Source: a virus. From it: 36,347 bases of DNA. This document shows, in pieces, positions 1-30,952 of this stretch (its first letter is position 1; each line of letters opens with the position of its first letter). The stretch lies in the IMG/VR virus record IMGVR_UViG_3300028829_002384, positions 1 through 36,347 of that record; one strand, 5' to 3'. The notes under the pieces are model-generated. The model had not been told where the DNA came from, did not search any database, and saw only the letters and a list, made by a program, of their open reading frames with translations. The translations under genes and the position numbers were made by a program.

Positions 1-1898
1 CATATATGGTAATGGCAGATACTGCATTTGAAATTGATCAAACAGTAACACCGTTAACTGGATTTACAAGAATAGGCGAAGGCTTAACTTCTAAAGGAAC
101 AAACGTTGACGGAGTAACATCAGGAACTACAAGATTCTTTGGTACAGCAGGCGATGCAGATAGATTGGGTGGACGTTTAGCAAGTACTTGGGCAAACAGA
201 AACGACAATGAAGTTATTACAGGTACTTACAGTTTTCAAAACGACGGTGGTATTACAATAGGTGATACACTTGAATTAAGTTTAAAAGTTATTAACGCTA
301 ATGAACCAAGTATTTTTGCAGATTTTGGCGACCAATTAAATTTAGGTGTTAACTATTCAGGTAGTGGATTTGATAAAACAACAATTTACTTAAAAGAAAA
401 AAGTGTTTTACCTTATGCAAACAATGAAATAAGTTTAGGATCACCAAGTAGAAACTTTAGAAACGTATATGCAACAGACATTTATGCAAACTTTATTGGT
501 ACACTTGCAGGATCTATGGTTGGTACAACAACAGGTGCTAACAGAGGTCCACTACAAGATAGTTCAGGAGCGACAGTTATTGATCCAGACACAGGATTAT
601 CGTACACAATTAACGTTGGTAATTCACAAGCAACAAACGGCCTAACAGTAGTAGATGTTGATGCAACTACAACAGCACCGATTGTACCAACTAGTGCAGG
701 AACACTTAGAGGTAGATTTGAAGGGTCAGCGGCATTTGTTGATTACGGAGTTTATACTAATCAAAATAATGTATTAGCAGGATCAAACACTTATAACGGC
801 ACATCAGTTTTTAACGGAAGTTCTACGCATACAGCACTAACTTCAACAAACGTAAACTTATCAGTTGGTAGAATTGGTAGAGGAGCAATTACAAGTCCTA
901 ATCCAGATCCAAACACTACTATTGGAGATTTATTAATTGATAGAGTAACTGTTAACGAATCTAGAATACAAGACGGGGATATAAGAGCAGGAACAATTAC
1001 AAATGGTACTGTAATTGACGGAGCCGACATTGGTAAAAATGCACCAGCAATACAAGTCAAAGCACAAAAATTTGTTGATGCTGTTGGAGCAGAAGCAACA
1101 CGTATCAGCAATGACGGACAGTTTTTACAAAACAGTGCAACTAACTTAGTCACTGAACGTGCTATTAAAGAATATGTAGATACAACATTCCAGTCAACAG
1201 GACAAGACATACAGTTTTATCTTGATACTAAAGATATGACAACAGCAGATGTTGGAACACAACTTACAAGACTTGCACCACCTGAAAATTTCAAAGAAGG
1301 AACTATTGCAAGAATACTAGGAAGTTACTATTATGGTAACCTAGGCGTTAATGGTGAAGGCAATCCAATCTATGTTAAAAAATACAGCACAACGAGACAA
1401 CGCGGTATTGGCTGGATTGGCGGCAGAAATGTTGAAAGCGGTGCAGGAGTTATTACAGATATTATTGACAAAAAAGCCGCTACTACAGGTTATGAATTTC
1501 AATTAAGTGCAACAGGAAGTATTACAACTGATACTCAAACACACAATCCAAATACAACTCAAGGTGACTTTACACTAAAATTAGGTAATGGTACTATTGA
1601 CGGTTGGTATGTATTTCCAAATGGTGCATTAAATGGAGACCAAGCAGATGAATTTTCAACTGATGCAGTACAAGGTGCACAAGTTGTTGTAGTAAGAAAT
1701 GGTCTAGTAGAAACTTATAGTTCGAATGATAGTATTTTACAACTAGTAGTTGGTAACGTTACATTTACTAGAGCGGCGGCTAGTTATTGGAATGGCACAG
1801 TTAACATTGCAGGATATGCAGTGGCAGTACAAGGATATGCATTTGATAGAACTTCTAGAACAAGTAGTGCGGCATGGGTGTATAAAGGTAATTTTTAA
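1..1898 (+). CDS. Fiber-like virion protein, 5' end may lie outside window
   Basis: Large, Gly/Thr/Asn-rich beta-type protein of at least 630 residues, typical of a tail fiber or other receptor-contacting structural protein of marine T4-like phages. The frame is open to the window edge; the first visible ATG is at base 6, so the true start may lie upstream. Around residues 140-175 there is a segment of the kind 'LGSPSRNFRNVYATDIYAN' followed by GTLAG/GTTTG repeats, a pattern also present in the second large fiber gene at 2898. The C-terminal third has no recognised domain and ends in an aromatic tail (WVYKGNF). Its stop overlaps the next start (TAATG). The structural role is inferred from composition and repeats; the exact position in the virion is unknown. 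Confidence 0.7.
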   Translation, partial: YMVMADTAFEIDQTVTPLTGFTRIGEGLTSKGTNVDGVTSGTTRFFGTAGDADRLGGRLASTWANRNDNEVITGTYSFQNDGGITIGDTLELSLKVINANEPSIFADFGDQLNLGVNYSGSGFDKTTIYLKEKSVLPYANNEISLGSPSRNFRNVYATDIYANFIGTLAGSMVGTTTGANRGPLQDSSGATVIDPDTGLSYTINVGNSQATNGLTVVDVDATTTAPIVPTSAGTLRGRFEGSAAFVDYGVYTNQNNVLAGSNTYNGTSVFNGSSTHTALTSTNVNLSVGRIGRGAITSPNPDPNTTIGDLLIDRVTVNESRIQDGDIRAGTITNGTVIDGADIGKNAPAIQVKAQKFVDAVGAEATRISNDGQFLQNSATNLVTERAIKEYVDTTFQSTGQDIQFYLDTKDMTTADVGTQLTRLAPPENFKEGTIARILGSYYYGNLGVNGEGNPIYVKKYSTTRQRGIGWIGGRNVESGAGVITDIIDKKAATTGYEFQLSATGSITTDTQTHNPNTTQGDFTLKLGNGTIDGWYVFPNGALNGDQADEFSTDAVQGAQVVVVRNGLVETYSSNDSILQLVVGNVTFTRAAASYWNGTVNIAGYAVAVQGYAFDRTSRTSSAAWVYKGNF

Positions 1899-4615: not shown

Positions 4616-5275
4616 CTATAGTTCTTGTACTAAAGGAAAGATTTCAGCGATAACTTTGGCACAAGCATGTGCAATATCCATATGTTCCTGTTGTGTACCG
4701 TTAGCACCACGCAACTCAATATAATGAACCCAACTACGTAAACTACCATTCATGTACAATGTTGTCTTAGTAATACCTTCGGGTAATACTTTACGTGCTT
4801 GTTCTTTAGCAATACCTTTTTTAATAGCCCAGTCATATTCTTTCTTGGCTAGTACTGCAATACGTCTTTGTGCATGTTCCCAATCAAGTTGTAATTGTTC
4901 ATCTTCTACTTTGATTGAATTCTGCCTGTTCTTTGGATCTTGTAATCGTGCTTCACTGTATTCGAACATATCGCCTTGATCTTCAGGATTAGCATAACGT
5001 TGACTAAACTCTTGAAAAGCAAAACTTCTATGTCTTACAATTTGGTGTGCAATATCACGTGTAGTTTGAATTTCTAAACAAGCACTTACCATTTCTAAAG
5101 GTGACCAATGTGCATGTTTAATTAAGTACTTGATAAGTTTTTCATTAGTCTCTTTATTCATTTGATTGCTTGGGTTACTTACCCTAGCACAAAAGGCAAT
5201 TAGATCTTGTACATTATCTAAGTCGTTTTTAAAATCTTGTGTTGGTTGTGAATAACTTACTAGATTAACTTTCAT
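4616..5275 (-). CDS. thyX: Flavin-dependent thymidylate synthase ThyX
   Basis: 219 residues, the usual ThyX length. It methylates dUMP to dTMP with methylene-tetrahydrofolate and FAD/NADPH, supplying thymidine for phage DNA synthesis. The ThyX signature RHR-x7-S is present (R81-H82-R83 ... S91, then QRY), as are conserved YLIKHAHWSPLE (50-61) and the late ELRGANGTQQEHMDIA segment. It ends the minus-strand block, just past the convergent junction, and its start lies immediately after the stop of the upstream 128-residue gene, implying co-transcription. ThyX is common in marine T4-like phages. Confidence 0.95.
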   Translation of the reverse strand: MKVNLVSYSQPTQDFKNDLDNVQDLIAFCARVSNPSNQMNKETNEKLIKYLIKHAHWSPLEMVSACLEIQTTRDIAHQIVRHRSFAFQEFSQRYANPEDQGDMFEYSEARLQDPKNRQNSIKVEDEQLQLDWEHAQRRIAVLAKKEYDWAIKKGIAKEQARKVLPEGITKTTLYMNGSLRSWVHYIELRGANGTQQEHMDIAHACAKVIAEIFPLVQEL

Positions 5276-5662
5276 TTACTTGTTCTTTCCTTTTTTCTTT
5301 GCTTCAGCGTTTTTACGTTTGATTGTTTTGTTTACTTTTTTAGTAAAAGCATTTCTTGCTTGAACAACTTGTCCTTGTAGATTAGTCATATCAACTCTAA
5401 AATCAATATGCTCAATATTACTACCGTGTTCTCTAATTAGATTGTTTACTCTGACTGCGGCCTCTTGTAGATGTCCGCTTTGAGCAAGGATACTAGGTAC
5501 GTCGATTATTATCTTTTTACCTACTTTTAGATTAAGTGTGAGTTCTCTTATGTATTGAATGGGAAGGCTTTCGATTTTAATTTCATCGATAACACCCTCC
5601 CATTCTGGATTATTTGCCTCATCGCCTTGGAGTATTATTCGTCCAGGGTTCTTTCGGTCCAT
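5276..5662 (-). CDS. Conserved hypothetical protein with basic C-terminus
   Basis: 128 residues, function not recognised. The first ~90 residues look like a small alpha/beta domain (IDEIKIESLPIQYIRELTLNL, KKIIIDVPSIL, IDFRVDMTNL). The last ~25 are very Lys/Arg rich (KKVNKTIKRKNAEAKKKGK), suggesting nucleic-acid or acidic-protein contact. It overlaps the upstream gene by one base (TAATG) and abuts thyX, so it is part of the same operon. Confidence 0.65.
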   Translation of the reverse strand: MDRKNPGRIILQGDEANNPEWEGVIDEIKIESLPIQYIRELTLNLKVGKKIIIDVPSILAQSGHLQEAAVRVNNLIREHGSNIEHIDFRVDMTNLQGQVVQARNAFTKKVNKTIKRKNAEAKKKGKNK

Positions 5663-6249
5663 TATGCACTAGTCTTAGATTTTTTAGAAGCAGGCTTTGG
5701 AGCCAATTCTTCTGCTTTCTTACGAAGTTCTTGTACTTCTTTATATAGTGCATCAGCATCTGCTCTATATTTTTTAGCAAGATCTTCGTCAGTCATAATG
5801 CCTGCATCATCTGCAGGAATTTCATTTGCTACGGCAACTGTTTTACCAGGTTTTCCATCTTCACCAATTGCAAGTTCATCAATGCCAACTCCTCGTTGGT
5901 CAGCAATAATTTTATTCAACTCATCTAGTTTAATCCATGAGTCTTTAGTTGTTGCTGGAGTCATTGTTACTTCGCTTGTTGGAACCTTTTGTAAGTGTCC
6001 TTTAGCATGTAATGAAGGTAACATAGTACTTCCATCACTGAATTTACGTACATTTAAAATTGTCGCAAGTTCAAATGCCTGTTGTGCTTCTTCTTTCATA
6101 ACCAATGAATCAAGTTCATCATGATATGTTTGTTTTAATGCCGCAGTAGGAATTACTAAAGCGTTAGTTGGTTCACCCGGAAGTGTTCTCATTGCAACTA
6201 ATACTTTTGTTCCGCTAGTACCTACTGTGCCTACGTGCTTAACTGTCAT
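5662..6249 (-). CDS. Conserved T4-like marine phage protein, function unknown
   Basis: 195 residues. It resembles a protein family I remember from T4-like cyanophages with an N-terminal KHVG start, a central LPSLHAKG segment (here about 79-86) and a KLDELNKII helix. No catalytic motif is evident. The C-terminal ~60 residues are helical, Ala/Lys/Glu rich (LYKEVQELRKKAEELA) and end in a basic PASKKSK tail. GGAGTAAACT precedes the ATG. It overlaps the next gene by one base. Confidence 0.65.
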   Translation of the reverse strand: MTVKHVGTVGTSGTKVLVAMRTLPGEPTNALVIPTAALKQTYHDELDSLVMKEEAQQAFELATILNVRKFSDGSTMLPSLHAKGHLQKVPTSEVTMTPATTKDSWIKLDELNKIIADQRGVGIDELAIGEDGKPGKTVAVANEIPADDAGIMTDEDLAKKYRADADALYKEVQELRKKAEELAPKPASKKSKTSA

Positions 6250-6252
6250 AGT

Positions 6253-6582
6253 TTACTCCTTAGGAGCCTCTGCTACTGGAGCAGGAGCCGCTGTTTCTGG
6301 TTGAGCAGGTGCACTTGTTGGTACCGGCGTTGCTGGTGCTTCACCGTCTGCTGATTCTGTCTTAGGCGTAATTGCCGCTAAGAAAGTGTCTAGTCTATTG
6401 TAAGTACGACCAACAACTTCCATTTCATTTGGCTTGTATGCACCACGTTGACTTGCAACGTCGATGATTGCCTTTAATGCTTGTAGATCTTGTACTGTAA
6501 GATCTGGTGCACCTTTTACTGGTGCTTCTGACTGAGGTGCTTCTGCTGTCGGCGCCTGAGTAGTTTTATTTTCGTCTGTCAT
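6253..6582 (-). CDS. Small Ala/Pro-rich conserved phage protein
   Basis: 109 residues: a Pro/Ala/Glu-rich, probably disordered N-terminus (1-25), a compact helical core (LTVQDLQALKAIIDVASQRG, then VVGRTYNRLDTFLAAI, about 28-75) and a disordered Ala/Pro tail. The core with LTVQDLQ...IDVASxRGA is familiar from T4-like cyanophage genomes, but its function is unknown. A clear ribosome site (GGAGTTAACTTAA ATG) fixes the start. Confidence 0.65.
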   Translation of the reverse strand: MTDENKTTQAPTAEAPQSEAPVKGAPDLTVQDLQALKAIIDVASQRGAYKPNEMEVVGRTYNRLDTFLAAITPKTESADGEAPATPVPTSAPAQPETAAPAPVAEAPKE

Positions 6583-6627: not shown

Positions 6628-6936
6628 TTAGTATGTTGTTAGGGTGTTGGTATGCAAAACTGAACAACCCAAACTAAACATAGTTGATTCAGAACCTTGT
6701 TCAAAACCAACCTTATACACAATTTCAATTTTGTTATCTACTAGTTCTGTATCACTAATAATACAAAATCTTCCGCTTAGATTATTGTAAATCCATTGTC
6801 TACAAAAATCTATATTTGATGTAATATCCCATGGTTGACCTTTTATCATTACAGTAGTCCATGATTTTGGACAAAAGTTTATTTCACGTATTTCTAATAC
6901 ATTTAATGGATTAGGTTTGTCGTGTAAAAACCTCAT
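6628..6936 (-). CDS. Hypothetical protein coupled to the VWA gene
   Basis: 102 residues, not recognised. Mixed alpha/beta with several Trp/Phe/Cys (WTTVMIKGQPWDITSNIDFCRQWIYNNL). The start overlaps the stop of the VWA/metallopeptidase gene by four bases (ATGA), indicating translational coupling and perhaps a functional link. It has no predicted membrane segment or signal peptide. Confidence 0.6.
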   Translation of the reverse strand: MRFLHDKPNPLNVLEIREINFCPKSWTTVMIKGQPWDITSNIDFCRQWIYNNLSGRFCIISDTELVDNKIEIVYKVGFEQGSESTMFSLGCSVLHTNTLTTY

Positions 6937-8222
6937 GCCGCCATTTCGCCTTTAGCATCATAATGGCAAGTAATGCCATGTGGTGCTTCAATTGAAGTAT
7001 CTGAATGTATAACCCAAATTGTATCACAATAGTTTTCGTCACCCCAGTTCCATGAGTAACCGTCTGTGAATACAATTAGTTTTTTAGGTTGAATATCATT
7101 CTCTTTCATATATACCCAATTAGCATCAAAGTCTGTACCACCACCACCGTGTAATTCGTAATCTTCAATAGTTACACCTGAGTCTGGTGTAAAGTCTTGT
7201 TCATTGTACACTTCAGTATCAAAGCACCATACTTTAATTTTGTAATCATCATATTGATCACAAATGCCTTTAACTTCACTTAAGAAGTCTTGTGCTTCTG
7301 CATTAGCAATTGATCCTGACATATCAAGTGCAATAGCAATGTCAATTGTTTGATCAAAATCCATACCAGGAAGTACTGCACCTGTGTGCCATGCTTTACG
7401 TGATGGACGCATAAATGTATAGTTACTCTTAATAACACTTTGAATCTGTTGATTAAGTAGTTCACGCCAATTCATTTTAGGCTCTGTAAGATCTTTAATC
7501 AATCTTGCTACACCTTTAGGAACATTACCAACACCAGCCGCCTGTGCCGCTGATACCATTGCTTCTTTCATTTCGTCACGTATCTTTTTCAATTCTTCTT
7601 TTGAGTAAGAAGGTTGTTTACCTTTACCACTTTTACTCTTTTTAGTTTTACCTGCAGGACCTTGTCCTTTACCTTTTTCCCAATCAATATGTTCGTCAAG
7701 CAATCTACCTAATTGTTCAAGTTGTTCTTGATCATACTTTTTAAAGATGTCATCGTATACTTCTTCTGAAGCCCAACCATAATATTTTGCATCGTGAAAT
7801 GGTTTTACTTGTGTAATTACTTCGCCAATGTTATGACGAATCAAATCACCGTTAACACAATAGTCAGCGGCAATGTTATAAATTTGTGCATCACGGTCAT
7901 CTCTACGTGTAAAGTGATCATAAACACAGTGTAGGATTTCATGTCCAAACAAGAATTCAGTTTGCTTTTGATTAAGACTGTTTACAAAGTTTTCATTGTA
8001 ATAAAAGTTTTTACCATCAGTTGCGGCAGTTGCACACCAGTCTGTTGCATCAATAATTTTAAGGCGTGTTGCTAAATTACCAAAAAACGGCTGACGGATT
8101 AGCAATGCAATTCTTGCAGTTGTTAATCTTTCTTTTACTTTAACACTATCGACAGCAGGATCTTTATCATAGATCTTACCATCTAACATTGTTTGCTCTA
8201 CTGCGGTTGTTTCTTGTGACAT
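6933..8222 (-). CDS. VWA-domain protein with HExxH metallopeptidase-like region
   Basis: 429 residues in the style of the DUF2201/VWA-like metallopeptidase family. The N-terminal domain has a zinc-protease motif H94-E-I-L-H98 followed by NIAADYCVN (116-124), where a third ligand (D120) could sit. A Lys/Gly-rich linker (about 183-207) leads to a VWA domain with a complete metal-ion-dependent adhesion site: D300-M-S302-G-S304, T363 (GGGGTDFD) and D387 (VFTDG). It is one gene cluster with the MoxR-type AAA ATPase at 9606-10697; MoxR-VWA pairs usually act as chaperones that load or remodel a metal enzyme or complex. Start: GGAGCAAAAAT ATG. A sigma70-type promoter lies directly upstream. Confidence 0.85.
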   Translation of the reverse strand: MSQETTAVEQTMLDGKIYDKDPAVDSVKVKERLTTARIALLIRQPFFGNLATRLKIIDATDWCATAATDGKNFYYNENFVNSLNQKQTEFLFGHEILHCVYDHFTRRDDRDAQIYNIAADYCVNGDLIRHNIGEVITQVKPFHDAKYYGWASEEVYDDIFKKYDQEQLEQLGRLLDEHIDWEKGKGQGPAGKTKKSKSGKGKQPSYSKEELKKIRDEMKEAMVSAAQAAGVGNVPKGVARLIKDLTEPKMNWRELLNQQIQSVIKSNYTFMRPSRKAWHTGAVLPGMDFDQTIDIAIALDMSGSIANAEAQDFLSEVKGICDQYDDYKIKVWCFDTEVYNEQDFTPDSGVTIEDYELHGGGGTDFDANWVYMKENDIQPKKLIVFTDGYSWNWGDENYCDTIWVIHSDTSIEAPHGITCHYDAKGEMAA

Positions 8223-8254
8223 ATTTTTGCTCCTAACTTTCTAACTATACTTAC

Positions 8255-8282
8255 ATTATAGCATCAACTAGGTATTTGTCAA
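8255..8282 (-). promoter_or_regulatory. Sigma70-type promoter for the VWA gene
   Basis: On the minus strand TTGACA (8282-8277), a 16-base spacer, then TATAAT (8260-8255), about 33 bases before the ATG at 8222. Both boxes match the consensus perfectly. Confidence 0.8.
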
Positions 8283-8283
8283 C

Positions 8284-8859
8284 CTAAAATTGTGCTAAAA
8301 AGTCTTGTTGCATCTTCTTTTTAGCGTCTTTGTATGACTTAGATTCTACTAGATCTTGTGGTTTATACTCACCTGGAACAAATACATATTGTACCATATG
8401 ACTTGGTAGTTTGGAGGTTTTTAAGCCATCACCTGCATCGACTACAAAGTTAATTAGGTCTTGTTTGGCAATAACCGCCGCACTATCAGTATCGCATATT
8501 AATAAAAAATCTGCATATCCTGGCGGTAATGTTCTTCCGGCACTTGATCCTCTACTGTTCATTAGTTGTAAATCGGACACGTTCTTTTTCTTTTGTTTCT
8601 TTTTACGAGTAAACAAACTACCTTCAGTGTATTTCATTTCGATTGTTGATGCTTCAGGACCAATATGATCTACACCTTCTAGGTTAACATATATCATTTC
8701 ATTGTTACTAAACAGTTCTAAAGAACGTTCTAATAAATCACTTTTATCAAAGCGAAGTTTACGTTCGTTGAGTTCATCACCGATAGTTTTAACCAGTGTG
8801 GTATACTTGTGCCAGTCGATGTTTTCTCTTAGCCAAATTGCAAGATCTACTGTTTGCAT
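8284..8859 (-). CDS. Hypothetical protein, possible nuclease-like fold
   Basis: 191 residues, not firmly recognised. Segments NLEGVDHIGPEASTIEMKY (about 59-77) and ADFLLICDTDSAAVI suggest an alpha/beta domain. The acidic residues followed by E-M-K recall the PD-(D/E)xK nuclease core, but this is a weak inference. A strongly basic stretch (RKKKQKKK) follows at about 85-92. The start has AAAAAGGATTTTAAAA before ATG and its own promoter at 8892-8920. It lies between the VWA gene and another unknown, inside the MoxR-VWA neighbourhood. Confidence 0.6.
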   Translation of the reverse strand: MQTVDLAIWLRENIDWHKYTTLVKTIGDELNERKLRFDKSDLLERSLELFSNNEMIYVNLEGVDHIGPEASTIEMKYTEGSLFTRKKKQKKKNVSDLQLMNSRGSSAGRTLPPGYADFLLICDTDSAAVIAKQDLINFVVDAGDGLKTSKLPSHMVQYVFVPGEYKPQDLVESKSYKDAKKKMQQDFLAQF

Positions 8860-8891
8860 TTTTAAAATCCTTTTTGCTTTGTAATGTAATT

Positions 8892-8920
8892 AGTATAACA
8901 GAAAGTTATCTAGAGGTCAA
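8892..8920 (-). promoter_or_regulatory. Sigma70-type promoter for the 8284-8859 gene
   Basis: Minus strand TTGACC (8920-8915), a 17-base spacer, TATACT (8897-8892), 33 bases upstream of the ATG at 8859. The -35 box overlaps the last codons of the upstream gene. Confidence 0.7.
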
Positions 8921-9534
8921 ATGATTTGGAAAAACTTGTTTGGCTGTATTGGTGGTTTATTGATTGTTGCCATTTCTTCAAAACTTGCACATTCATAACT
9001 CCACCATTTACGATGTCGTTGTGGATCACAATTAAAATCTGGTTCTTCAGTAATTCCACTTTTATTATGAATTACAATTTCTAATTTACCTTGTATTTCG
9101 TTAGCAGGAATACAAAAGAAATAAAACTTTTTATCGATTGTATTGTATCCACAGATCCTTACTAATCCTTCTTTGTGTTTAGTACCTGGAACTGAAAAAG
9201 TGTGTGTCCAACTGCCACGTTTTTTGTCGTTATTTCTAAATTGACTGGTTGTAAACTTTGCATCCGAATAGTCATCAAAATCACTACCGTAGCCTAGTGT
9301 AATAGTAATATCTTTGTTAACACAGCCTATTGCAAGTTCTAGTAGATCTTCGTATGTAAGATTGCGTAAAAAATCTGCTGTATATACAACATCTATTTCT
9401 GGCTGATGATAGTAAATTTTATCAAGAAGAAAGTCTTTGATAATTTCATTTTGTTCGGCTCTACGAGAGAACCAATCCATTTTTAGGCGTTCTTCAAAAT
9501 CCATGTCAGTAGTACTTACCGGATTTGCTAACAT
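8917..9534 (-). CDS. Hypothetical protein in the MoxR-VWA cluster
   Basis: 205 residues, not recognised. The N-terminal third is helical (FEERLKMDWFSRRAEQNEIIKDF). The middle has ...GSDFDDYSDAKFTT and a beta-rich stretch GLVRICGYNTIDKKFYFFCIPANEI (about 128-152), a pattern reminiscent of nuclease-type folds but without a clear catalytic set. The start follows AAAAAGGATTCAAAA. It lies downstream of moxR beyond a terminator hairpin, with the next promoter inside its 3' end. Any role with the MoxR-VWA pair is inferred from position only. Confidence 0.6.
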   Translation of the reverse strand: MLANPVSTTDMDFEERLKMDWFSRRAEQNEIIKDFLLDKIYYHQPEIDVVYTADFLRNLTYEDLLELAIGCVNKDITITLGYGSDFDDYSDAKFTTSQFRNNDKKRGSWTHTFSVPGTKHKEGLVRICGYNTIDKKFYFFCIPANEIQGKLEIVIHNKSGITEEPDFNCDPQRHRKWWSYECASFEEMATINKPPIQPNKFFQII

Positions 9535-9574
9535 TTTTGAATCCTTTTTGAAAGTGATGCTTTAGAAAAGAAGC

Positions 9575-9596
9575 GAGGGGATCCGAAGACCCCCTC
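9575..9596 (-). terminator. Rho-independent terminator after moxR
   Basis: GAGGGG at 9575-9580 pairs with CCCCTC at 9591-9596, extended inward to a 9-base stem with one mismatch and a CGAA loop. On the minus strand it is followed by CTTCTTTTCTAAA, a U-rich tail. It sits 10 bases past the moxR stop. Confidence 0.75.
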
Positions 9597-9605
9597 TATA
9601 GTTAG

Positions 9606-10697
9606 TTAGGATGCCATAGCGGCTTGAACATACTTGCCGTACTTGTCATGGAAACGGTCAAAGTTTTTCAAGTCTTTTGGCGAAAATGGCAGTTTGTAAG
9701 TAGCGATAGCAACTCGCGTACCCATTACAACTAGTTCAGTTTCAAAATTATCCATCATAAAACCAAAGAAGTTATCTGCCATTTGTGTCCAACCCTTCTC
9801 CTTGCGTTTGAACGCCTCTTGAAGTTCATAACACATACTTACAGTTAGTGAATACATTGCCGAAATTTCTTTCGTCTCCATAGTCTTAACCTTGCCATTA
9901 AGTATGTCTGTTGGATTAGGCAGTTTCGCCGCAACCTTACGGCGTGCCGCAAATTTAACTGCCAGGCCTTCGCCGACTGAACCTGCTACCAAGTCTGTTA
10001 GTGTAGACTCTTGCAAGTTATCATCGAGAAGTTCGCTTACGAAACTCCAAGAACGTGGAGTTGCGAATGCTCTTGAACTTGACTTAGGATCAAAATCATA
10101 TAGATCTTGTTTTGCAAAAGTCAAGTAACCCACAACGTCTGCGTGGATTTTATGTTCTGTCGCCCATGTCAACCAATCTTCAAAGTCAACACGTAGTTCT
10201 AAGTGTACAAACCTGTTAGCAAGTGGTGCCGGCATACGATAAGTAACACCCTTATCAGTTTCACGGTTACCTGCCGCAACAATTACAACATTGTCTGGAA
10301 GTTTGTATGTACCAACTTTACGGTTTAGAATAAGTTGGTAAGCGGCCGCCTGTACTGCTGGTGCCGCAGAATTCATTTCATCTAAGAAAAGAACGATGCT
10401 TTTAAATTGTGATGCAAATTCTTCTGTTGGAAGTTCTGCTGGTGGTGCCCACGCCATTACATTGTCGTTTGCAGAGTAGTAAGGTATACCCTTAATATCT
10501 GTAGGCTCCCAAAGTGATAGTCTAATATCTATCAAATGTGAATTATCTAATGACCCATTAATCTGTGCCATAATATCTGATTTACCAATGCCTGGAGGTC
10601 CCCACATAAAGATAGGACGCTTCAATTTCATTGCGTGTTGTACTGCTGATTTCGCCTCGTTTGGTGTAACTGTACGTGCTTCTGTTGTTTGTGCCAT
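9606..10697 (-). CDS. MoxR-type AAA+ ATPase
   Basis: 363 residues. Walker A GPPGIGKS (33-40), Walker B VLFLDE (102-107), sensor 1 region VVIVAAGNRE followed by YRMPAPLANRF, and an ATPR-type motif (RAFATPRSW) match MoxR/CbbQ-like AAA+ ATPases. These act as hexameric chaperones with a VWA-domain partner; that partner is the protein at 6933-8222, two genes downstream. The gene has its own sigma70-type promoter, a strong ribosome site (AAAAGGAGCATAGCAAA ATG) and a terminator, so it is an independent transcription unit. The client in phage infection is unknown; host enzyme or RNA polymerase remodelling, or virion assembly, are possibilities. Confidence 0.88.
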   Translation of the reverse strand: MAQTTEARTVTPNEAKSAVQHAMKLKRPIFMWGPPGIGKSDIMAQINGSLDNSHLIDIRLSLWEPTDIKGIPYYSANDNVMAWAPPAELPTEEFASQFKSIVLFLDEMNSAAPAVQAAAYQLILNRKVGTYKLPDNVVIVAAGNRETDKGVTYRMPAPLANRFVHLELRVDFEDWLTWATEHKIHADVVGYLTFAKQDLYDFDPKSSSRAFATPRSWSFVSELLDDNLQESTLTDLVAGSVGEGLAVKFAARRKVAAKLPNPTDILNGKVKTMETKEISAMYSLTVSMCYELQEAFKRKEKGWTQMADNFFGFMMDNFETELVVMGTRVAIATYKLPFSPKDLKNFDRFHDKYGKYVQAAMAS

Positions 10698-10732
10698 TTT
10701 GCTATGCTCCTTTTGTTTCTAACTATAATACT

Positions 10733-10760
10733 ATAATACACTCAACTAGCAAAAAGTCAA
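10733..10760 (-). promoter_or_regulatory. Sigma70-type promoter for moxR
   Basis: Minus strand TTGACT (10760-10755), a 16-base spacer, TATTAT (10738-10733), about 36 bases before the ATG at 10697. A second TATAGT-like sequence lies just downstream. Confidence 0.7.
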
Positions 10761-10806: not shown

Positions 10807-11196
10807 TTAGTCGTCTAGTTCTTGTGCCATAGCACGAGCAAGGCCATATTGCTTAATATCTCCAGCAAACATCATAAGTTGTAGACCCATTTTTTCGCTG
10901 AATACATATATTCTTTTCTTCGTAACGTAATACGGACAATCAATAAAGTTATCTAAGTATAAGAATACTTGTGGTGTAAACTTTATCTCGTTAGGAAATT
11001 TTATTTCATATGTGGCTAAATCTGCATGATCAACAGCAAAATCAAAGCCGTCTTTAGTTAGGCGTAATCCGCTGTCGCCTTTCATGCGTGTATTCTGCCA
11101 CCAAAGCATATAGTTTTTCTTAATCTCAGTATCAAGTATATTTTCTTGTCCTGCGGAGATCATGAAAGTTTTAGTGTATGCTTCTTTAATATCCAT
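10807..11196 (-). CDS. Conserved T4-like marine phage protein, unknown
   Basis: 129 residues. It resembles a protein widely kept in T4-like cyanophages: ILDTEIKKNYMLWWQNTR, a GLRLTKDG segment, then FLYLDNFIDCPYYVTKK (about 77-93) and a C-terminal FAGDIKQYG. No known catalytic motif is visible. Its ATG overlaps the upstream gene's stop by one base (TAATG). Confidence 0.65.
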   Translation of the reverse strand: MDIKEAYTKTFMISAGQENILDTEIKKNYMLWWQNTRMKGDSGLRLTKDGFDFAVDHADLATYEIKFPNEIKFTPQVFLYLDNFIDCPYYVTKKRIYVFSEKMGLQLMMFAGDIKQYGLARAMAQELDD

Positions 11197-11480
11197 TATG
11201 CGATTTTATCGCCTTTAGTTAACTTGTAAACTTCAAACTCTGCAGATTTAAATGTAGAGTTTAATTTCTTAGCCAAATTAATTGCATGTCCTGGATTAGA
11301 GAATGAAGTCTTTTTATATTTAGGTCCTGGAGTAGGTGAAATTGAATTTGAACTTTTAAGATTAAAAGGTTTACCCTGATAGAAGACTGCCCATATTGCT
11401 TCTGCATCTAGCACTTCTTCTCTACGATAGGTGTTCTTGTCAGTAAATTCTAACAATATATTTGGTTTAGGTCTACTCAT
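11196..11480 (-). CDS. Small hypothetical protein
   Basis: 94 residues beginning MSRPKPNILLEF, chosen because AAAAGG lies 11 bases upstream of this ATG; a TTG three codons earlier is too close to it. Contents: beta strands, a Pro/Ser linker (SNSISPTPGPKYKKTSF) and a helix GHAINLAKKLNSTFKSAEF, so possibly a single small domain. The function is not recognised. It is coupled to the 129-residue gene downstream. Confidence 0.6.
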   Translation of the reverse strand: MSRPKPNILLEFTDKNTYRREEVLDAEAIWAVFYQGKPFNLKSSNSISPTPGPKYKKTSFSNPGHAINLAKKLNSTFKSAEFEVYKLTKGDKIA

Positions 11481-11512
11481 TATACGCAATTCCTTTTAGT
11501 TAACTACGTATA

Positions 11513-13400: not shown

Positions 13401-14015
13401 TTATACAATATTAAAACTAATTGCAATTCTATCACGTTCGTGTCTTTGTTGTGCAACACTATGTTTCAAATACCCAGGAAAGATGTTTAACATACTTGTA
13501 CTAGGCTTAAAACTAACTTGTGTTGTATTAAAGTCATTGTATTCGTTTATTACATTACTAGCCCAATGATTGTCTGATATCGCAGGACTAAAAAAGTTTA
13601 ATGAAGCATCATCTTCGTGTGCTTCTACATAATACACACCACTCCAAATACTAGGAGTATGTGTGTGCGTTTCGTGGTAACTGCCTTTTCTGTTAATAGC
13701 AAACCACATGTCTTTAATAGTGAATTCATGTTCTTTTGTAAAACCCATAAAGTCGTTAAGTTTTCTAACATTGTCAGATAAAAAATTTACAAAAGGTTTC
13801 ATTTCATCATATTCTATTAATTGTTTGTCTAATACTTTATTATAACTGGTATAGTAGTGATCTGTCAAGTTAAAAGATGTACTATCCATAGGAAATTTTT
13901 CTTCAATTTGATAAAACAGATGTTTCATATCCAAATTGAACTTGTTTCCTTCGTTCCAAACTTTACGTGCTAGAACGTTGGGAAACAAACCTACAATTTC
14001 CCCTTGTTGGTCCAT
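13401..14015 (-). CDS. Putative 2OG-Fe(II) oxygenase
   Basis: 204 residues with the architecture of the TIGR02466 putative 2OG-Fe(II) oxygenase family. It begins with the LFPNVLARKVW motif typical of that family (10-20) and has the beta-helix signature GSYHETHTHTPSIWSGVYYV (111-130). The iron is probably bound by H117/H119, with distal H185 (GYLKHSV) and R196 (DRIAISFN) for 2-oxoglutarate. It overlaps the upstream gene by one base (TAATG). The substrate is unknown; such enzymes are frequent in marine T4-like phages. Confidence 0.85.
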   Translation of the reverse strand: MDQQGEIVGLFPNVLARKVWNEGNKFNLDMKHLFYQIEEKFPMDSTSFNLTDHYYTSYNKVLDKQLIEYDEMKPFVNFLSDNVRKLNDFMGFTKEHEFTIKDMWFAINRKGSYHETHTHTPSIWSGVYYVEAHEDDASLNFFSPAISDNHWASNVINEYNDFNTTQVSFKPSTSMLNIFPGYLKHSVAQQRHERDRIAISFNIV

Positions 14016-14386: not shown

Positions 14387-14499
14387 AGTAGTCCTTTTTC
14401 TCTCAATTCTTCATCGAGTGGTTTTTTAATTTCAGCCTTCATTGCCTTTTCATGTTGACTGTTTTTATATTCTCTCAACTTATCAAGTTCCCCAGGCAT
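14383..14499 (-). CDS. Very short gene overlapping the queE 3' end
   Basis: 38 residues (MPGELDKLREYKNSQHEKAM, then AEIKKPLDEELREKGLL), a single charged helix. The ATG lies within the last codons of queE (overlap 14483-14499, different frame), with GGA close before it, so translation would be coupled to queE termination. The stop overlaps the next start (ATGA). The charged coding-like composition beyond queE and the tidy ends favour a real gene. Confidence 0.45.
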   Translation of the reverse strand: MPGELDKLREYKNSQHEKAMKAEIKKPLDEELREKGLL

Positions 14500-15379
14500 T
14501 TCCGAATAGGCTGATGTGTAGTCTTGGAGTGAATCTCCATCCTCTTTCCATACATGCTTCTGCGACTTGGTTAACGTTGAGAACATATTCTTCACTGCGT
14601 CCACCCAGCGGCATAAGATATACCGGACATTCCACCCCGGCATTTCTGTAAGCGTCCACAGCCTTTGTAACTTCATCAAAATCTTTATCAGTAGCGACAA
14701 CAAACTTGAGATACATGTCGCTATCAGTAACAGTGTTATACTGCTGAGCCACATCAGGTTTGATAGCAGTTTCCCAAGGTTCTCCGCTAACTGAAAGTTT
14801 TGGGGAACAAGACCAAGTGACTTGGATTCTGTCCTGATTGTTGAGATAGTTGAATAAATCGTCGTGTAAAGTTTGTGTAGTGTTTGTTTCAAATGTAACA
14901 TTTTTTAAATCCTGCATACGTGGATGCTCAAATAATTCTACGTACAATCGTTGCCACGCCAACAAAGGTTCGCCGCCTGTCATAATTAAATGGATGTCTT
15001 GACCGTTGTCCATAGTCCATTTACCTTCTGGTAATAAACTTAACAAGTGTTCAACTACTTCGTCTACAGTTGCTTGTTTATTAAATTTCTTAAACTCAGG
15101 ATAGATACTTGCATATGTATCACAGCCTGTATGTATAATAGGTAAGTCGTTAAACTCTTTTGTAGTTTCATGTACGCCAGCGTCTAACAAATCTTGTACT
15201 TCCTGATTACGGATAATACCAGCCTTTTGTTTTTCATCTCGCATTGGTTCATCAGTTAATCCAAAGTTCATGCAACGAAAGTTACAACCAAAAGTACGTA
15301 AGAACACACTTGGTACTCCTACAAACTTACCTTCACCTTGTACACTATAAAACGCTTCTGAGTATCTTAGTTTCTGCAT
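14483..15379 (-). CDS. queE: 7-carboxy-7-deazaguanine synthase-like radical SAM protein
   Basis: 298 residues. QueE turns 6-carboxytetrahydropterin into 7-carboxy-7-deazaguanine with S-adenosylmethionine and a 4Fe-4S cluster, a step to preQ0. The N-terminus FYSVQGEGKFVGVPSVFLR (10-28) and TGGEPLL (134-140) are classic QueE features, as is the C-terminal RLHISLFGN region. The cluster loop reads GC32-NFR-C36-MNFG: where a third Cys is expected there is F39. The next Cys, C86 in IIHTGCDTYAS, may take over. The gene has its own perfect promoter (15400-15428) and AGGAGAATAAT before the ATG. Together with FolE, QueD-like, YhhQ and the DpdA-like enzyme it points to 7-deazaguanine DNA modification. 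Confidence 0.88.
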   Translation of the reverse strand: MQKLRYSEAFYSVQGEGKFVGVPSVFLRTFGCNFRCMNFGLTDEPMRDEKQKAGIIRNQEVQDLLDAGVHETTKEFNDLPIIHTGCDTYASIYPEFKKFNKQATVDEVVEHLLSLLPEGKWTMDNGQDIHLIMTGGEPLLAWQRLYVELFEHPRMQDLKNVTFETNTTQTLHDDLFNYLNNQDRIQVTWSCSPKLSVSGEPWETAIKPDVAQQYNTVTDSDMYLKFVVATDKDFDEVTKAVDAYRNAGVECPVYLMPLGGRSEEYVLNVNQVAEACMERGWRFTPRLHISLFGNAWGT

Positions 15380-15428: not shown

Positions 15429-15844
15429 CCGTTAATAACATCTTCTATGTCCATTTGACTATTATTTTTTTTGGAATACTTTTGTTTTTCTGGAATAACA
15501 CCACGAATTCCGCCTGCTGGATCGATCATATCTCCGTCTCTACGGAAAATTAAATGTACATGTGGATACATGCAAGTTTGTCCTGCACTCTTACCCATAT
15601 TAATACCTACATTATATCCTGTAATGTTATTATTATCTGATTTGATATTATCATTGCCCATTGAATTAGCAAATTTAAAACATTTTAAGATTGCTTCTTC
15701 TGTATTTTCTTTAGGTACAACAAGTGTATGTCCTTGTGTAACAGGATAGATATCATTGTAAACAACAAAATCACGTGTGTCAATTTCAACTTCAGTCCAT
15801 GGTGCTCGACCTTCAGATTGTGCTTTTTCTAAAGTATCAGTCAT
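15425..15844 (-). CDS. HIT-family protein
   Basis: 139 residues starting MTDTLEKAQ, chosen because AGGA precedes it and the ATG overlaps the upstream stop (TAATG). HIT proteins are nucleotide hydrolases or transferases. Seen: VTQGHTLVVPK (35-45), GINMGKSAGQT (80-90) and a histidine-triad region Y93-P-H95-V-H97-L-I. The first His of the usual HxHxH is Tyr here while the middle (catalytic) and third are kept. The C-terminal ~35 residues (IRGVIPEKQKYSKKN...) are extra. Possible roles are dinucleotide or adenylylated-intermediate hydrolysis; the substrate is unknown. Confidence 0.8.
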   Translation of the reverse strand: MTDTLEKAQSEGRAPWTEVEIDTRDFVVYNDIYPVTQGHTLVVPKENTEEAILKCFKFANSMGNDNIKSDNNNITGYNVGINMGKSAGQTCMYPHVHLIFRRDGDMIDPAGGIRGVIPEKQKYSKKNNSQMDIEDVING

Positions 15845-16581
15845 TAAAAATCCTGTGTCCAAATAGCGGCACTATATCCTTTGCCATTAGTATCTCCACC
15901 TTGATTGTCTATTTCAGCATCATTGTAATAAACTGCCGACACAGTATCTTCACCATTAGGTAGTTCGTACATATGTATTTTTAATTTTTTAGCATCAAAG
16001 TCACCAATAGTTTCTACTATTCCTTCAAAAAATGTACCTTTTTCCATTGAGAGCATTTGGATAATGTGTGTTCCTTTTTCTGGGTACGCATCGTCTTGAG
16101 GTTGTAAAATTTCAACTTCGTTATCAGAGTCTTCATCAACTTTATTAACCCATTCATTTAAATCTTCTCCTTCGACAATATCTCTAATATGTTCTGCAGA
16201 ATAATCATCTCCGCTAACTTCGTCTATAGTAATGTAAGCACTATCTATAGAAACATTATTAACATGTTCAAATTCAGTTGGCATTTCAAACCAACTACTA
16301 CGCCATTCATTGCCGTCACTACCTGCACTCATTAAAAAGTCTGCCTCAGGTGGAACTTCATCAATGTTTTCAAAATCAAAATCACCTTCTTCAGCATTAA
16401 GTGCATAATTACATAAATCGCTATCACCGTGTTCTTCTACAATAGGCTTCCAAAAATCATACTGTTCTTGAGTCAATGTTCCGTACACATGTTCGCCGCC
16501 GTATCCGTTAAGCATGATACGATAAAATCTAGGACCTTTAATAGTTTCTAGTGTGTGTTCTTTTTCTTGCAGTGTTGCCAA
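15844..16581 (-). CDS. Acidic hypothetical protein, TTG start
   Basis: 245 residues, strongly acidic (long Asp/Glu runs in the middle, 55-165). The N-terminus GPRFYRIMLNGYGGEHVYGTL and the C-terminus FFEGIVETIGDFDAKKLKIHMYEL are beta-like. It may be a nucleic-acid mimic or a binding protein, but nothing is proven. The start codon is TTG at 16581, with AAGGAA seven bases before it, the site lying in the end of the upstream gene. The stop overlaps the HIT gene start. Confidence 0.6.
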   Translation of the reverse strand: MATLQEKEHTLETIKGPRFYRIMLNGYGGEHVYGTLTQEQYDFWKPIVEEHGDSDLCNYALNAEEGDFDFENIDEVPPEADFLMSAGSDGNEWRSSWFEMPTEFEHVNNVSIDSAYITIDEVSGDDYSAEHIRDIVEGEDLNEWVNKVDEDSDNEVEILQPQDDAYPEKGTHIIQMLSMEKGTFFEGIVETIGDFDAKKLKIHMYELPNGEDTVSAVYYNDAEIDNQGGDTNGKGYSAAIWTQDF

Positions 16582-18070: not shown

Positions 18071-18350
18071 TAGTTTCAACATCAGTTACGTTTGCCCATC
18101 TAAAACTACGCCAACCTTTAGCATTAGTGTCCCATACTATTTGTGTTTCTTCACTAATAGAACGAACTTTCTTTTGACTAGCAGTGTCATCTTTAGTTGC
18201 AGGCGGAATAACACCTTCTTCAAGTGTACACGTCATTACTCTTTTGTCACCGTTTATTTTTGTAAATGTAACAACAACTTCACCTTGTTTAAGTTTTGTT
18301 ATTGTTGATTCTTTTAATTCTTCATATGTTTCCACATTAACTTCTTTCAT
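18063..18350 (-). CDS. WYL_2/Sm-like SH3-barrel protein
   Basis: 95 residues resembling the WYL_2, Sm-like SH3 beta-barrel family (formerly DUF2693). Typical parts: LKQGEVVVTFTKINGDKRVMTCTL (20-43) and a C-terminal IVWDTNAKGWRSFRWANV (about 71-88), where basic and aromatic residues are conserved. Family members are found in T4-like phages; nucleic-acid or ligand binding is suspected. The start follows GAGGAGTATTTAA within the end of the upstream gene (14-base overlap). Confidence 0.75.
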   Translation of the reverse strand: MKEVNVETYEELKESTITKLKQGEVVVTFTKINGDKRVMTCTLEEGVIPPATKDDTASQKKVRSISEETQIVWDTNAKGWRSFRWANVTDVETNA

Positions 18351-18813
18351 TTAAATACTCCTCGTTATGAACCCATCTGTATCCAGTATGTTTTACCCAA
18401 CGCATAAAGCCCCATTCTTTTTGTTTCTTTCCCATAAAGAATATGCTTGTGCATGGTAGTTCGTTTCCGTCTTTGTCTTTAGCAAGTTCTAACCAATGTA
18501 AGTCGCTTGCCTTTCGAAATCTAATATGTCCTGGACCACGCCAATGTGAAGTTGCACCACATACGTGTCCTTCTTGTGCAAATACTGGAACATGTTCCCA
18601 ATACCCACCTTTTAAAATAATAGCACCCCAACTCCATGGATGATCATGTAACACAGGTTCATCACTTACAAGAACTTTATGAAGTGTAATATTAAATGGA
18701 AAGTTTTTTCTTTCCTTTAAGAATAGATAATATCTAATCAAATAAGGTATTTTTCCTGAGCGATCAGTAATCACTCTGCGTCTACCTAGTTTATCCATTA
18801 TCTTACTAAACAT
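18337..18813 (-). CDS. Cupin-like protein
   Basis: 158 residues with a cupin-style beta barrel. LHDHPWSWGAIILKGGYWEHV (about 55-75) has the metal-ligand-like H-x-H and G-x-Y/E pattern. A later His, DLHWLEL, could be the fourth ligand. The N-terminal helix is basic (GRRRVITDRSG). The enzyme activity and substrate are unknown. Its start directly abuts the upstream stop, and its end carries the ribosome site of the WYL_2 gene. Confidence 0.65.
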   Translation of the reverse strand: MFSKIMDKLGRRRVITDRSGKIPYLIRYYLFLKERKNFPFNITLHKVLVSDEPVLHDHPWSWGAIILKGGYWEHVPVFAQEGHVCGATSHWRGPGHIRFRKASDLHWLELAKDKDGNELPCTSIFFMGKKQKEWGFMRWVKHTGYRWVHNEEYLNERS

Positions 18814-19851: not shown

Positions 19852-20535
19852 CTAACATGCAAATTGTTGTTGCAGTTTAACATTGTCAATAAATTCTTTT
19901 TTAGTTGCAGGATCATCTTTAAACGCACCACGTAATACTGTTGTTTGTGTTAATGAACTGTGGGCTCTAATACCCCTGTTCTCACAACAACCGTGTGTTG
20001 CTTGTACATATACACCTACGTGTTCACTACCTGTTTGTTCTTGTATTGCATTTGCAATCATAACATTCAGTTCTTCTTGTAGTGTACCTCTTGTAGCACA
20101 CCATTGTGCAATACGAGTGTACTTACTTAAACCTAATAGTTTAGGTCCTGCAATGATACCAATGTATGCTACACCTTTTACTGTCTGGTGATGATGCGAA
20201 CATAAACTTGTAAGTTCACTTCGCACTACTAACATACCTTCATAACCGCCTTCAATATAGTTAGGAAATGCACTTGGATTAGGCATTGGATCATAACGTC
20301 CTGCCATAATCTCATTAATGTACATCTTAGCCATACGTCTTGCAGTATCCTGACTGTTAGGATCTGTTTTAGTATCAATTAATAATTTTTGTAATACATT
20401 TTCAAAAGCAGGAACTGCCTCATCAATTAATTGTTGCTTATCGCCTTCTTTAATGTAATCAGCAATATTATCATTAGCCCAATATCTTACACCATCTTGT
20501 TCTAATTTTGTTTTTATTTCTTCACTTTTACTCAT
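19852..20535 (-). CDS. folE: GTP cyclohydrolase I
   Basis: 227 residues, normal FolE length. It converts GTP to dihydroneopterin triphosphate, the first step toward 7-deazaguanine and folate. The zinc site is visible: C112 and H115 in SLCSHHHQ, C183 in ATHGCCENRG (H181 next to it). The core LGLSKYTRIAQWCATR (134-149) is the substrate-binding helix region. The start follows CGGAGAAACAA. In this phage, next to yhhQ and with QueD-like, QueE and DpdA-like genes, it most likely serves base modification rather than folate. Confidence 0.93.
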   Translation of the reverse strand: MSKSEEIKTKLEQDGVRYWANDNIADYIKEGDKQQLIDEAVPAFENVLQKLLIDTKTDPNSQDTARRMAKMYINEIMAGRYDPMPNPSAFPNYIEGGYEGMLVVRSELTSLCSHHHQTVKGVAYIGIIAGPKLLGLSKYTRIAQWCATRGTLQEELNVMIANAIQEQTGSEHVGVYVQATHGCCENRGIRAHSSLTQTTVLRGAFKDDPATKKEFIDNVKLQQQFAC

Positions 20536-30408: not shown

Positions 30409-30952
30409 GTAATTTAAACGGAATTGGCACCGTTTTGTCTAAACATTTAAACCAAACGTTATTTGGACCTATATGATGGTCGTCTGGTAACAGTTCATTA
30501 ACTGCTTTGTTTACACCTGGGAAATCCATATCATGTCCACATAACCAACCGTTTGGTTTTAATTTAGGTGTGTAGTATTCAATATCACCTTTTACGCTAT
30601 CATAATCGTGACTAGCATCAATGAATACGAAGTCTAAACTGCCGTTTTCTATCTGTTCGTGTACTGTATGACTATGTCCTTGTATTGCTTTTAGTCTAGG
30701 ACCATACTTTATTATCATGTTATCTTTATAGAACAACTTTATGTTATAGTCAATAGCATACATTTTTAATTTTGGAAATGCTTCTAGTAAATGAAATGTT
30801 GTTCTACCGTTTCTTACGCCGACTTCGCAACCCACTGTTGGTTGTATTTTTTTAAATAAGTCTGCTAAAAAGTAATCTCTTTTGTTAGGTCCAGTGTATT
30901 CGATTGTTCTTTTAATTTTAATTTTATCATTAGCCAATGTTTTCTGCCTCAT
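30398..30952 (-). CDS. Class I SAM methyltransferase-like protein
   Basis: 184 residues from MRQKTLAND. Rossmann-type methyltransferase: motif I CEVGVRNGRTTFHLLEAFP (about 42-60), acidic end of strand 2 in MYAIDYN, and DFVFIDASHDYDSVKGDIEYYTPKL in the style of the Methyltransf_24 group. The target is unknown. The start is uncertain: an ATG lies 12 codons upstream, and a TTG at 30937 has a GAGG nine bases ahead. The gene overlaps the upstream gene's end. Confidence 0.75.
   Translation of the reverse strand: MRQKTLANDKIKIKRTIEYTGPNKRDYFLADLFKKIQPTVGCEVGVRNGRTTFHLLEAFPKLKMYAIDYNIKLFYKDNMIIKYGPRLKAIQGHSHTVHEQIENGSLDFVFIDASHDYDSVKGDIEYYTPKLKPNGWLCGHDMDFPGVNKAVNELLPDDHHIGPNNVWFKCLDKTVPIPFKLLDN

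What the first reader, a model, noticed from the sequence alone, without database searches (positions are those of the whole stretch)
6933..10760. MoxR-VWA chaperone pair with metallopeptidase-like VWA partner in a phage
A MoxR-type AAA ATPase and a DUF2201-style VWA protein carrying both HExxH and a full MIDAS lie two genes apart, each with its own promoter. Two unknown proteins with weak nuclease-like features sit between. MoxR-VWA pairs activate metal enzymes or complexes; a phage client is not known to me. The two intervening unknowns may be clients or effectors.
Basis: partly seen in the sequence, partly recalled or inferred. Interest (0 to 1): 0.55.

Follow-up and report, generated by a model that had tools for sequence, protein, structure and literature searches.

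The report
Phage MoxR ATPase with metallopeptidase partner
This phage carries a known but little-studied protein-remodelling pair, an ATP-driven ring protein and a partner with a zinc-protease-like domain, and the two unknown genes between them look like unrelated, swappable passengers, not parts of the machine.

Summary
The window (an IMG/VR virus fragment) has a MoxR-type AAA+ ATPase (9606-10697, -) and a DUF2201_N/DUF2201 protein (6933-8222, -) with HExxH and a complete MIDAS. Each has its own sigma70-type promoter, conserved in relatives. The pair is not new: tblastn finds the ATPase in 806 and the VWA protein in 782 of 50,697 phage records; N4 gp24/gp25 are core genes of N4-like phages, and Iyer et al. 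2021 described this pair in jumbo phages and proposed a virion-assembly role. Active-site residues are almost invariant (HExxH glutamate 88 of 89), so both metal sites look selected. The two intervening genes are not conserved partners: the slot is empty in 33 of 33 distinct relatives at 55-80% identity and filled by differing genes in 32 of 32 at 80% or more; neither gene matches any phage record. One (8284-8859) models as a PD-(D/E)XK restriction-endonuclease fold and also occurs away from the pair. The client remains unknown; a phage virion or early/middle protein is most likely. A side finding, bacterial homologues encoded beside retron-type reverse transcriptases, is the most interesting lead.

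The parts
9606..10697 (-). MoxR-type AAA+ ATPase (363 aa); Walker A K39, Walker B D106-E107, sensor-1 N144, arginines R162 and R215
10733..10760 (-). sigma70-type promoter of the ATPase gene (TTGACT-16-TATTAT)
9575..9596 (-). intrinsic terminator-like stem-loop just after the ATPase stop codon
   Evidence: terminator-like sites within 110 nt of the ATPase stop in 15/28 (55-80% group, control 0) and 19/25 (<55%, control 1), but 15/30 with control 15 in the >=80% group
6933..8222 (-). DUF2201_N metallopeptidase-like domain (residues 30-277) fused to VWA-like DUF2201 domain (295-416), 429 aa
7929..7943 (-). HExxH motif, residues 94-98 (HEILH)
   Evidence: H94 and H98 89/89, E95 88/89
7863..7865 (-). 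D120, invariant in the motif N-x-A-x-D-x3-N; candidate third metal ligand (inference)
   Evidence: 89/89
7311..7325 (-). MIDAS DxSxS, residues 300-304 (with T363 and D387 downstream)
   Evidence: 89/89 for D300, S302, S304
8255..8282 (-). sigma70-type promoter of the VWA gene (TTGACA-16-TATAAT, TG extension)
8284..8859 (-). intervening gene P3 (191 aa): PD-(D/E)XK restriction-endonuclease-like nuclease; D64, E74-x-K76 invariant in 15/15
   Evidence: not a partner of the pair
8917..9534 (-). intervening gene P4 (205 aa), no family found; on 5 IMG/VR contigs only
10807..11196 (-). U1 (129 aa), small protein upstream of the ATPase, kept in 11 of 25 pair-bearing records, not universal
11196..11489 (-). 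U2 (97 aa), conserved neighbour in the jumbo lineage
6628..6936 (-). D1 (102 aa), overlaps the end of the VWA gene; lineage neighbour
6253..6582 (-). D2 (109 aa), lineage neighbour downstream of VWA (also 121Q, GAP32, Vibrio 2.275, PA5oct)
5662..6249 (-). D3 (195 aa), lineage neighbour; 12 of 25 pair-bearing records
4616..5275 (-). thymidylate synthase; also a few genes downstream of the pair in 121Q, GAP32 and Vibrio 2.275

Best explanation
The ATPase and the VWA protein are the two parts of one ATP-driven protein-remodelling machine of the MoxR type. Inferred mechanism: a ring of the ATPase works on a client brought to it by the VWA protein, whose MIDAS metal site grips the client (or the ring) and whose zinc domain binds or clips it. 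Shown here: both genes, their near-invariant active-site residues, their very wide co-occurrence, and separate sigma70-type promoters. The most likely client is a phage protein made in the early/middle phase or a tail/virion component matured before assembly (about 0.45); a host target is next (about 0.3). The two genes between them are passengers at an insertion slot between the ATPase terminator and the VWA promoter: one a restriction-endonuclease-like nuclease, the other unassigned. They are not clients.
For: Pair in 806/782 of 50,697 phage records; ATPase HMM hit in 19 of 20 and VWA in 20 of 20 named-phage loci (in the twentieth, Vibrio 1.097, a P-loop NTPase gene cut by the locus edge lies about 6 kb away, not searched). 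Residues: H94/H98/D120/N124/R106 89/89, E95 88/89, MIDAS D/S/S 89/89; ATPase N144, R162, R215 87/87, K39 84/87 with 3 gaps. Bacterial homologues are also paired: ATPase ORF in 65 of 71 loci, mostly overlapping and just upstream. Slot: >=80% identity 32/32 filled (645-2364 bp), 55-80% 33/33 empty (16-111 bp), <55% 13 empty and 16 filled. P3 and P4: 0 of 20 named-phage loci, 0 of 50,697 records. P3 model pLDDT 91; nearly all of its best matches are restriction endonucleases (NaeI Z 11.1, 140 residues, 3.5 A). Structural link: structural genes just upstream in 121Q, 'second structural module' next to gp24/gp25 homologues in RPP1, with a similar one in LIT1 (PMC4193335, passages), ATPase among virion MS proteins of phAPEC6 (6 peptides, 19%; PMC7247149 table) and flagged ESI-MS/MS in the PA5oct record.
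Against: No client is shown. N4 gp24/gp25 are middle transcripts, the promoters are sigma70-type and neighbours are often replication or nucleotide genes, which does not suit late virion assembly. The phAPEC6 virion list also holds thymidylate synthase and replication proteins, so carry-over is possible, and the neighbouring gp264 (where I expect the VWA protein) is not listed. Agrobacterium phage Atu_ph07 has HQILH (codon CAG), so hydrolysis is not needed everywhere. The virion RNA polymerase is not the general client: found in 5 of 25 pair-bearing records. U1 and D3 are not universal (11/25, 12/25). The VWA model is only pLDDT 76 and its N-terminal domain was not matched to a solved fold.
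Confidence: 0.55

Rival explanations
1. Host takeover or counter-defence: the pair remodels or cleaves a host (defence) protein early in infection.
For: sigma70-type promoters conserved; middle transcripts in N4; close to rIIA/rIIB in rV5 and in the same region as rIIAB in N4 and Frozen, and rII modules of T4, MM02, EdH4, SUSP1 and N4 are presented as Rex counter-defence (PMC11879866, passages); bacterial homologues sit with retron-type RTs, so the machinery may be used in conflict systems.
Against: Core gene across N4-like phages and widespread in several lineages, more like a housekeeping role; no PADLOC match for the VWA protein and only a weak AAA match for the ATPase.
Confidence: 0.3
2. 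Metal-insertion chaperone, like NorQ/NorD or CobS/CobT, loading a metal centre into a phage enzyme.
For: MoxR-VWA pairs such as NorQD do this (PMC9976466 and PMC13036017, seen as search listing and start of abstract); the window holds possible metalloenzymes such as a 2OG-Fe(II) oxygenase and a QueE-like radical SAM protein.
Against: No metalloenzyme neighbour is shared by the examined pair loci. The zincin domain is unneeded in that model.
Confidence: 0.1
3. The four genes form one functional module with P3 and P4 as clients or effectors.
For: P3 is kept in most loci of the nearest clade, with its own promoter.
Against: Slot empty in 33/33 relatives at 55-80% identity; P4 on 5 contigs only; P3 on 6 contigs (4.3-117.5 kb) with no VWA match, next to a ligase-like gene in the four read.
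Confidence: 0.04

Closest known systems
MoxR-vWA/metallopeptidase pair of group 2.2 jumbo phages (Iyer et al. 2021, PMC7824862; ASV44729.1/ASV44728.2 of Agrobacterium phage Atu_ph07)
   Same: Homologous in both proteins (39% and 36% identity), same domain order, adjacent genes
   Different: In Atu_ph07 no gene between them and the HExxH glutamate is Gln; here two passenger genes and Glu
N4 gp24/gp25 (Schitoviridae core genes)
   Same: Homologous ATPase and metallopeptidase-VWA pair
   Different: About 28-29% identity; no U1, D2, D3 neighbours found
MoxR-type pair orf66/orf63 of Bacillus phage 0305phi8-36 (PMC2147016)
   Same: Phage MoxR ATPase with a second subunit nearby
   Different: Homology not tested here
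ATV p618/p892 tail-development chaperones (Scheele 2011, seen only as cited)
   Same: Viral MoxR-VWA pair
   Different: Described as without the peptidase domain; homology not tested here
Bacterial DUF2201/MoxR operons, some beside retron-type RTs
   Same: Same two-gene unit, same motifs
   Different: Phage proteins do not nest within the RT-linked clades; no RT among 40 window proteins scanned

Membership tests
DUF2201 (metallopeptidase-VWA) proteins | DUF2201_N and DUF2201 domains above curated cut-offs | tested here: met
DUF2201 (metallopeptidase-VWA) proteins | HExxH and complete MIDAS | tested here: met
MoxR-class AAA+ ATPases | AAA_5/AAA_3-type AAA+ core with Walker A/B, sensor 1 and conserved arginines | tested here: met
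   (AAA_3 just under its cut-off)
MoxR-class AAA+ ATPases | Partner VWA gene in the same locus | tested here: met
MoxR-class AAA+ ATPases | ATPase and chaperone activity | not testable with these tools
   needs biochemistry
Phage MoxR-metallopeptidase/vWA pair (Iyer 2021) | Homology of both proteins to ASV44729/ASV44728 | tested here: met
VMAP ternary conflict systems | bpMoxR-type MoxR or VMAP component | tested here: inconclusive
   PF20030 bpMoxR only 13.1 bits against cut-off 27; no VMAP model was searched by name
Retron-linked MoxR-VWA operons (bacterial) | RT gene next to the pair | tested here: not met
   no RT among 40 window proteins scanned with PHROGs
PD-(D/E)XK nucleases (P3) | Restriction-endonuclease fold with D...(D/E)xK | tested here: met
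   Foldseek best E 0.011, so weak by that score, Z 11.1 by VIA-align
NorQD/CobST-type metal chaperones | Metal delivery to a client enzyme | not testable with these tools
   none

The most novel reading that the evidence does not exclude
Large lytic phages carry, as a near-core gene pair, the same MoxR plus metallopeptidase-VWA machine that some bacteria encode beside retron-type reverse transcriptases; the phage version acts in the phage-host or phage-phage conflict (neutralising or copying that machinery) and not in virion assembly.
Probability: 0.12. Interest if true: 0.7.

Novelty: new member of a known kind. Interest (0 to 1): 0.35.

Why it matters
The pair is widespread (about 800 of 50,697 phage records, core in N4-like phages) and I found no functional test of it. 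The residue conservation says that both the metallopeptidase-like site and the MIDAS are kept, and the comparison removes the two intervening genes as candidates. That makes N4 gp24/gp25, in a laboratory host, a clean place to look for the client. The name 'HNH endonuclease' carried by PHROG_1314 hides the family in many genomes.

Tried and rejected
Virion RNA polymerase as general client: N4 mini-vRNAP found in 5 of 25 pair-bearing records only, so rejected as a rule. U1/D2/D3 as universal third components: U1 in 11/25, D3 in 12/25 records; not found in the N4-like, rV5-like, G, phiFa and phiR1-37 records searched, and sometimes far from the pair; kept as lineage neighbours. D3 tblastn: 29 records, all 29 also in the list, but these are related jumbo phages. 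T4-type late promoter TATAAATA: 0 in the window against 5.7 expected. PADLOC: no useful match for the window proteins. NCBIfam: none for the window pair. P3 profile against PDB sequences: none. The N-terminal domain of the VWA model was not resolved by fold search, whose rows span 259-426; the only hint is a weak profile hit to MJ1213 (E 0.0045). Not found in the papers read: any mutant or knock-down of N4 gp24/gp25; full-text searches were (open-licence papers only). The recent jumbo-phage review has no MoxR or vWA, nor has the antisense-oligomer phage paper. Terminator counts in the >=80% group equal their control (15 and 15 of 30), so they are no evidence there. Conservation of E95 in the bacterial set is biased, because the search pattern itself contained HE; it is not used as evidence. 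Rows dropped: loci with the same ATPase and VWA ends were merged before the counts; five phage-like contigs binned as bacteria (L151-L155) were kept out of the bacterial residue counts and neighbour clusters; short or truncated VWA ORFs were left out.
Full report
The thing itself. The window is a 36,347-base virus record. On the minus strand it encodes a 363-aa AAA+ ATPase (9606-10697) and a 429-aa protein (6933-8222) with a DUF2201_N metallopeptidase-like domain and a DUF2201 VWA-like domain. The ATPase belongs to PHROG_1297 and the second protein to PHROG_1314. The ATPase family profile finds Midasin as the best solved relative (1.6e-29), in keeping with a MoxR-class ATPase. The VWA domain is recovered by fold search (Z about 12 over 130-136 residues).

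Active sites. Across 89 distinct VWA proteins from the phage and IMG/VR loci, window included, H94, H98, R106, D120 and N124 are 89/89, E95 is 88/89 (Gln in Atu_ph07), and the MIDAS D300/S302/S304 are 89/89; T363 and D387 are 88/89, the missing one being a truncated copy. In 87 ATPases N144, R162 and R215 are 87/87, K39 84/87 with three gaps and D106 85/87. D120, in an N-x-A-x-D-x3-N motif on the helix after the HExxH helix, is the likely third metal ligand; this is inference. Selection keeps both metal sites, but one natural Gln shows that hydrolysis may be dispensable in one phage.

Distribution. tblastn finds the ATPase in 806 and the VWA protein in 782 of 50,697 phage records. I examined 20 named-phage loci: PA5oct, Phosso, 121Q, SSE121, rV5_ev146, LUZ7, N4, Atu_ph07, SCTP-2, G, KLEP7, At2, GAP32, phiFa, Vibrio 2.275, SonariX, POP17, Vibrio 1.097, phiR1-37 and Frozen. 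The VWA HMM matches in 20 of 20, the ATPase HMM in 19 of 20.

The slot between the genes. Among distinct loci with both genes on one strand, the gap is 645-2364 bp in 32 of 32 at >=80% VWA identity, 16-111 bp in 33 of 33 at 55-80%, and mixed below 55% (13 under 200 bp, 16 longer). The fillers differ: an HNH protein in 24 loci rows (PF01844 1.1e-05 for its representative), a T5orf172 protein, and several families without Pfam match; PA5oct carries an annotated putative homing endonuclease with a homologue in Vibrio 2.275. P3 is in most loci of the near clade; P4 is on five contigs. Neither is in any of the 20 named-phage loci nor in the 50,697 records. Many of the rows come from overlapping pieces of the same contig; one search merges them.

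What P3 is. Its model (15 sequences, pLDDT 91.3) matches restriction endonucleases: Foldseek best is NaeI at E 0.011; VIA-align gives NaeI Z 11.1 (140 residues, 3.5 A) with DpnI, Eco15I, NhoI and the homing enzyme I-Ssp6803I below. D64, E74 and K76 are invariant in 15 of 15. On six other contigs (4.3 to 117.5 kb; L105-L110) P3 lies away from the pair: 0 of 6 show a VWA match, with the warning that contigs may be fragments. In the four of these that I read (L105, L107, L109, L110) it sits just upstream of a gene whose sequence looks to me like a phage DNA ligase, from memory and untested. That is how a movable free-standing nuclease behaves. P4 stays unassigned.

Expression. The VWA gene has a 12/12 extended -10 promoter and the ATPase a 10/12 one. 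In relatives, promoters of 10/12 or better precede the ATPase in 30/30 and 28/28 and the VWA gene in 30/30 and 27/28 loci, against 0/58 inside the ATPase gene; below 55% identity 9/25 and 9/25. A terminator-like hairpin follows the ATPase stop codon. The slot thus lies between a terminator and a promoter, where an insertion harms neither unit.

Conserved neighbours. U2, U1, D1, D2, D3 flank the pair in the IMG/VR relatives. HMMs from these find U1 in 121Q, GAP32, Vibrio 2.275, Phosso, Atu_ph07 and PA5oct, and D2 and D3 in 121Q, GAP32, Vibrio 2.275 and PA5oct. Over 25 whole records (20 named, 5 IMG/VR), U1 is in 11, D3 in 12 and the N4 mini-vRNAP in 5. The only unit kept throughout is the ATPase-VWA pair. 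Frequent company is nucleotide and replication genes (thymidylate synthase in 121Q, GAP32, Vibrio 2.275, Frozen; dCTP or dCMP deaminase in N4, Frozen, KLEP7; DNA polymerase in LUZ7, Phosso, Atu_ph07, SCTP-2, 1.097), rIIAB genes in rV5_ev146 and N4 and a rIIA-like gene in Frozen, and, in 121Q, annotated structural genes.

What is in print. Iyer et al. 2021 (PMC7824862, passages) describe this pair in group 2.2 jumbo phages, citing ASV44729.1 and ASV44728.2, which are the Atu_ph07 genes, and propose virion assembly with processing. Chan et al. 2014 (PMC4193335, passages; author name recalled) list N4 gp24 and gp25 (vWFA) among 14 core genes, as middle transcripts, near a second structural module. 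The N4-diversity paper of 2020 (PMC7650795, one passage) lists gp24 as AAA+ ATPase. The 0305phi8-36 paper (PMC2147016, passages) names a two-subunit MoxR-type chaperonin. The phAPEC6 virion proteome (PMC7247149, passages) lists the ATPase but not gp264, and also lists thymidylate synthase, a topoisomerase subunit and SSB. A functional test of the pair was not found in searches.

Mechanism. Shown: two paired proteins with complete active sites. From family knowledge: MoxR ATPases with VWA partners remodel dedicated clients (PMC9976466 and others, listings and starts of abstracts). Inferred: the VWA protein brings a client by its MIDAS and the zinc domain binds or cuts it. Client identity is open: virion or early/middle phage protein 0.45, host protein 0.3, metal centre 0.1.

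Side finding. Bacterial relatives (71 loci): 65 have the ATPase ORF, mostly directly upstream. 32 of 66 non-phage loci have an RT-like ORF upstream. In one clade of 28 rows (support 100/99) 23 are RT-linked; four of the other five (L178, L182, L185, L190) have at most about 0.3 kb upstream of the ATPase or start within the VWA gene, while the fifth, L200, has 5 kb and no RT found. The RT matches PADLOC RT_XIII best (1e-76, one representative); all 24 such ORFs carry the YADD-type motif; the N-terminal extension and the gene between RT and ATPase have no Pfam or PADLOC match of their own in the representatives scanned. A smaller alphaproteobacterial set has another RT. Phage proteins do not fall within these clades. 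Whether this equals a described retron type I could not check; the accessory genes of retron type XIII are recalled, not read.

Verdict. Observation confirmed; pair known; intervening genes are passengers; client open.

Noticed in passing
Genome-contig loci L159, L162-L164, L167, L169-L172, L174-L177, L179-L181, L184, L187, L191, L192, L196-L198, L201: Bacterial MoxR plus metallopeptidase-VWA pairs preceded by a retron-type RT (PADLOC RT_XIII 1e-76 for one; YADD-type motif in 24 of 24) with a long unassigned N-terminal extension (about 640-740 aa in the two measured), an unknown ~300-350 aa protein and sometimes a DNA methylase, in several phyla.
   Followed up: partly
L188, L204, L207-L209, L212, L213, L215: Gut alphaproteobacterial pairs with a different RT upstream (RVT_1 1.1e-17 for L215; only a 55-aa piece in L204); a 161-aa unknown gene recurs in 15 loci of this kind.
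   Followed up: no
L199:2779-5295: Clostridial MoxR ATPase with a ~370-aa N-terminal extension that looks by eye like a lectin-type/DUF6273 sensor region.
   Followed up: no
window 6933-8222 and PHROG_1314: PHROG_1314 is named 'HNH endonuclease', and this name appears on many phage records, but the window protein has only metallopeptidase and VWA domains in Pfam.
   Followed up: yes
L118:5254-6543 (Atu_ph07 ASV44728.2): The published example of this phage family has Gln (CAG) in place of the HExxH glutamate.
   Followed up: partly
window 14483-15379 and 19852-20535: QueE-like radical SAM and GTP cyclohydrolase genes, possibly part of a 7-deazaguanine DNA modification pathway.
   Followed up: no
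window 6-1898, 15844-16581, 20572-21672, 24596-26044: Large ORFs without any PHROG match at E 0.01.
   Followed up: no
window 13401-14015, 18337-18813, 30930-31583: PHROG matches to a 2OG-Fe(II) oxygenase, cysteine dioxygenase and ferredoxin family, i.e. several possible redox or iron proteins in one phage fragment.
   Followed up: no
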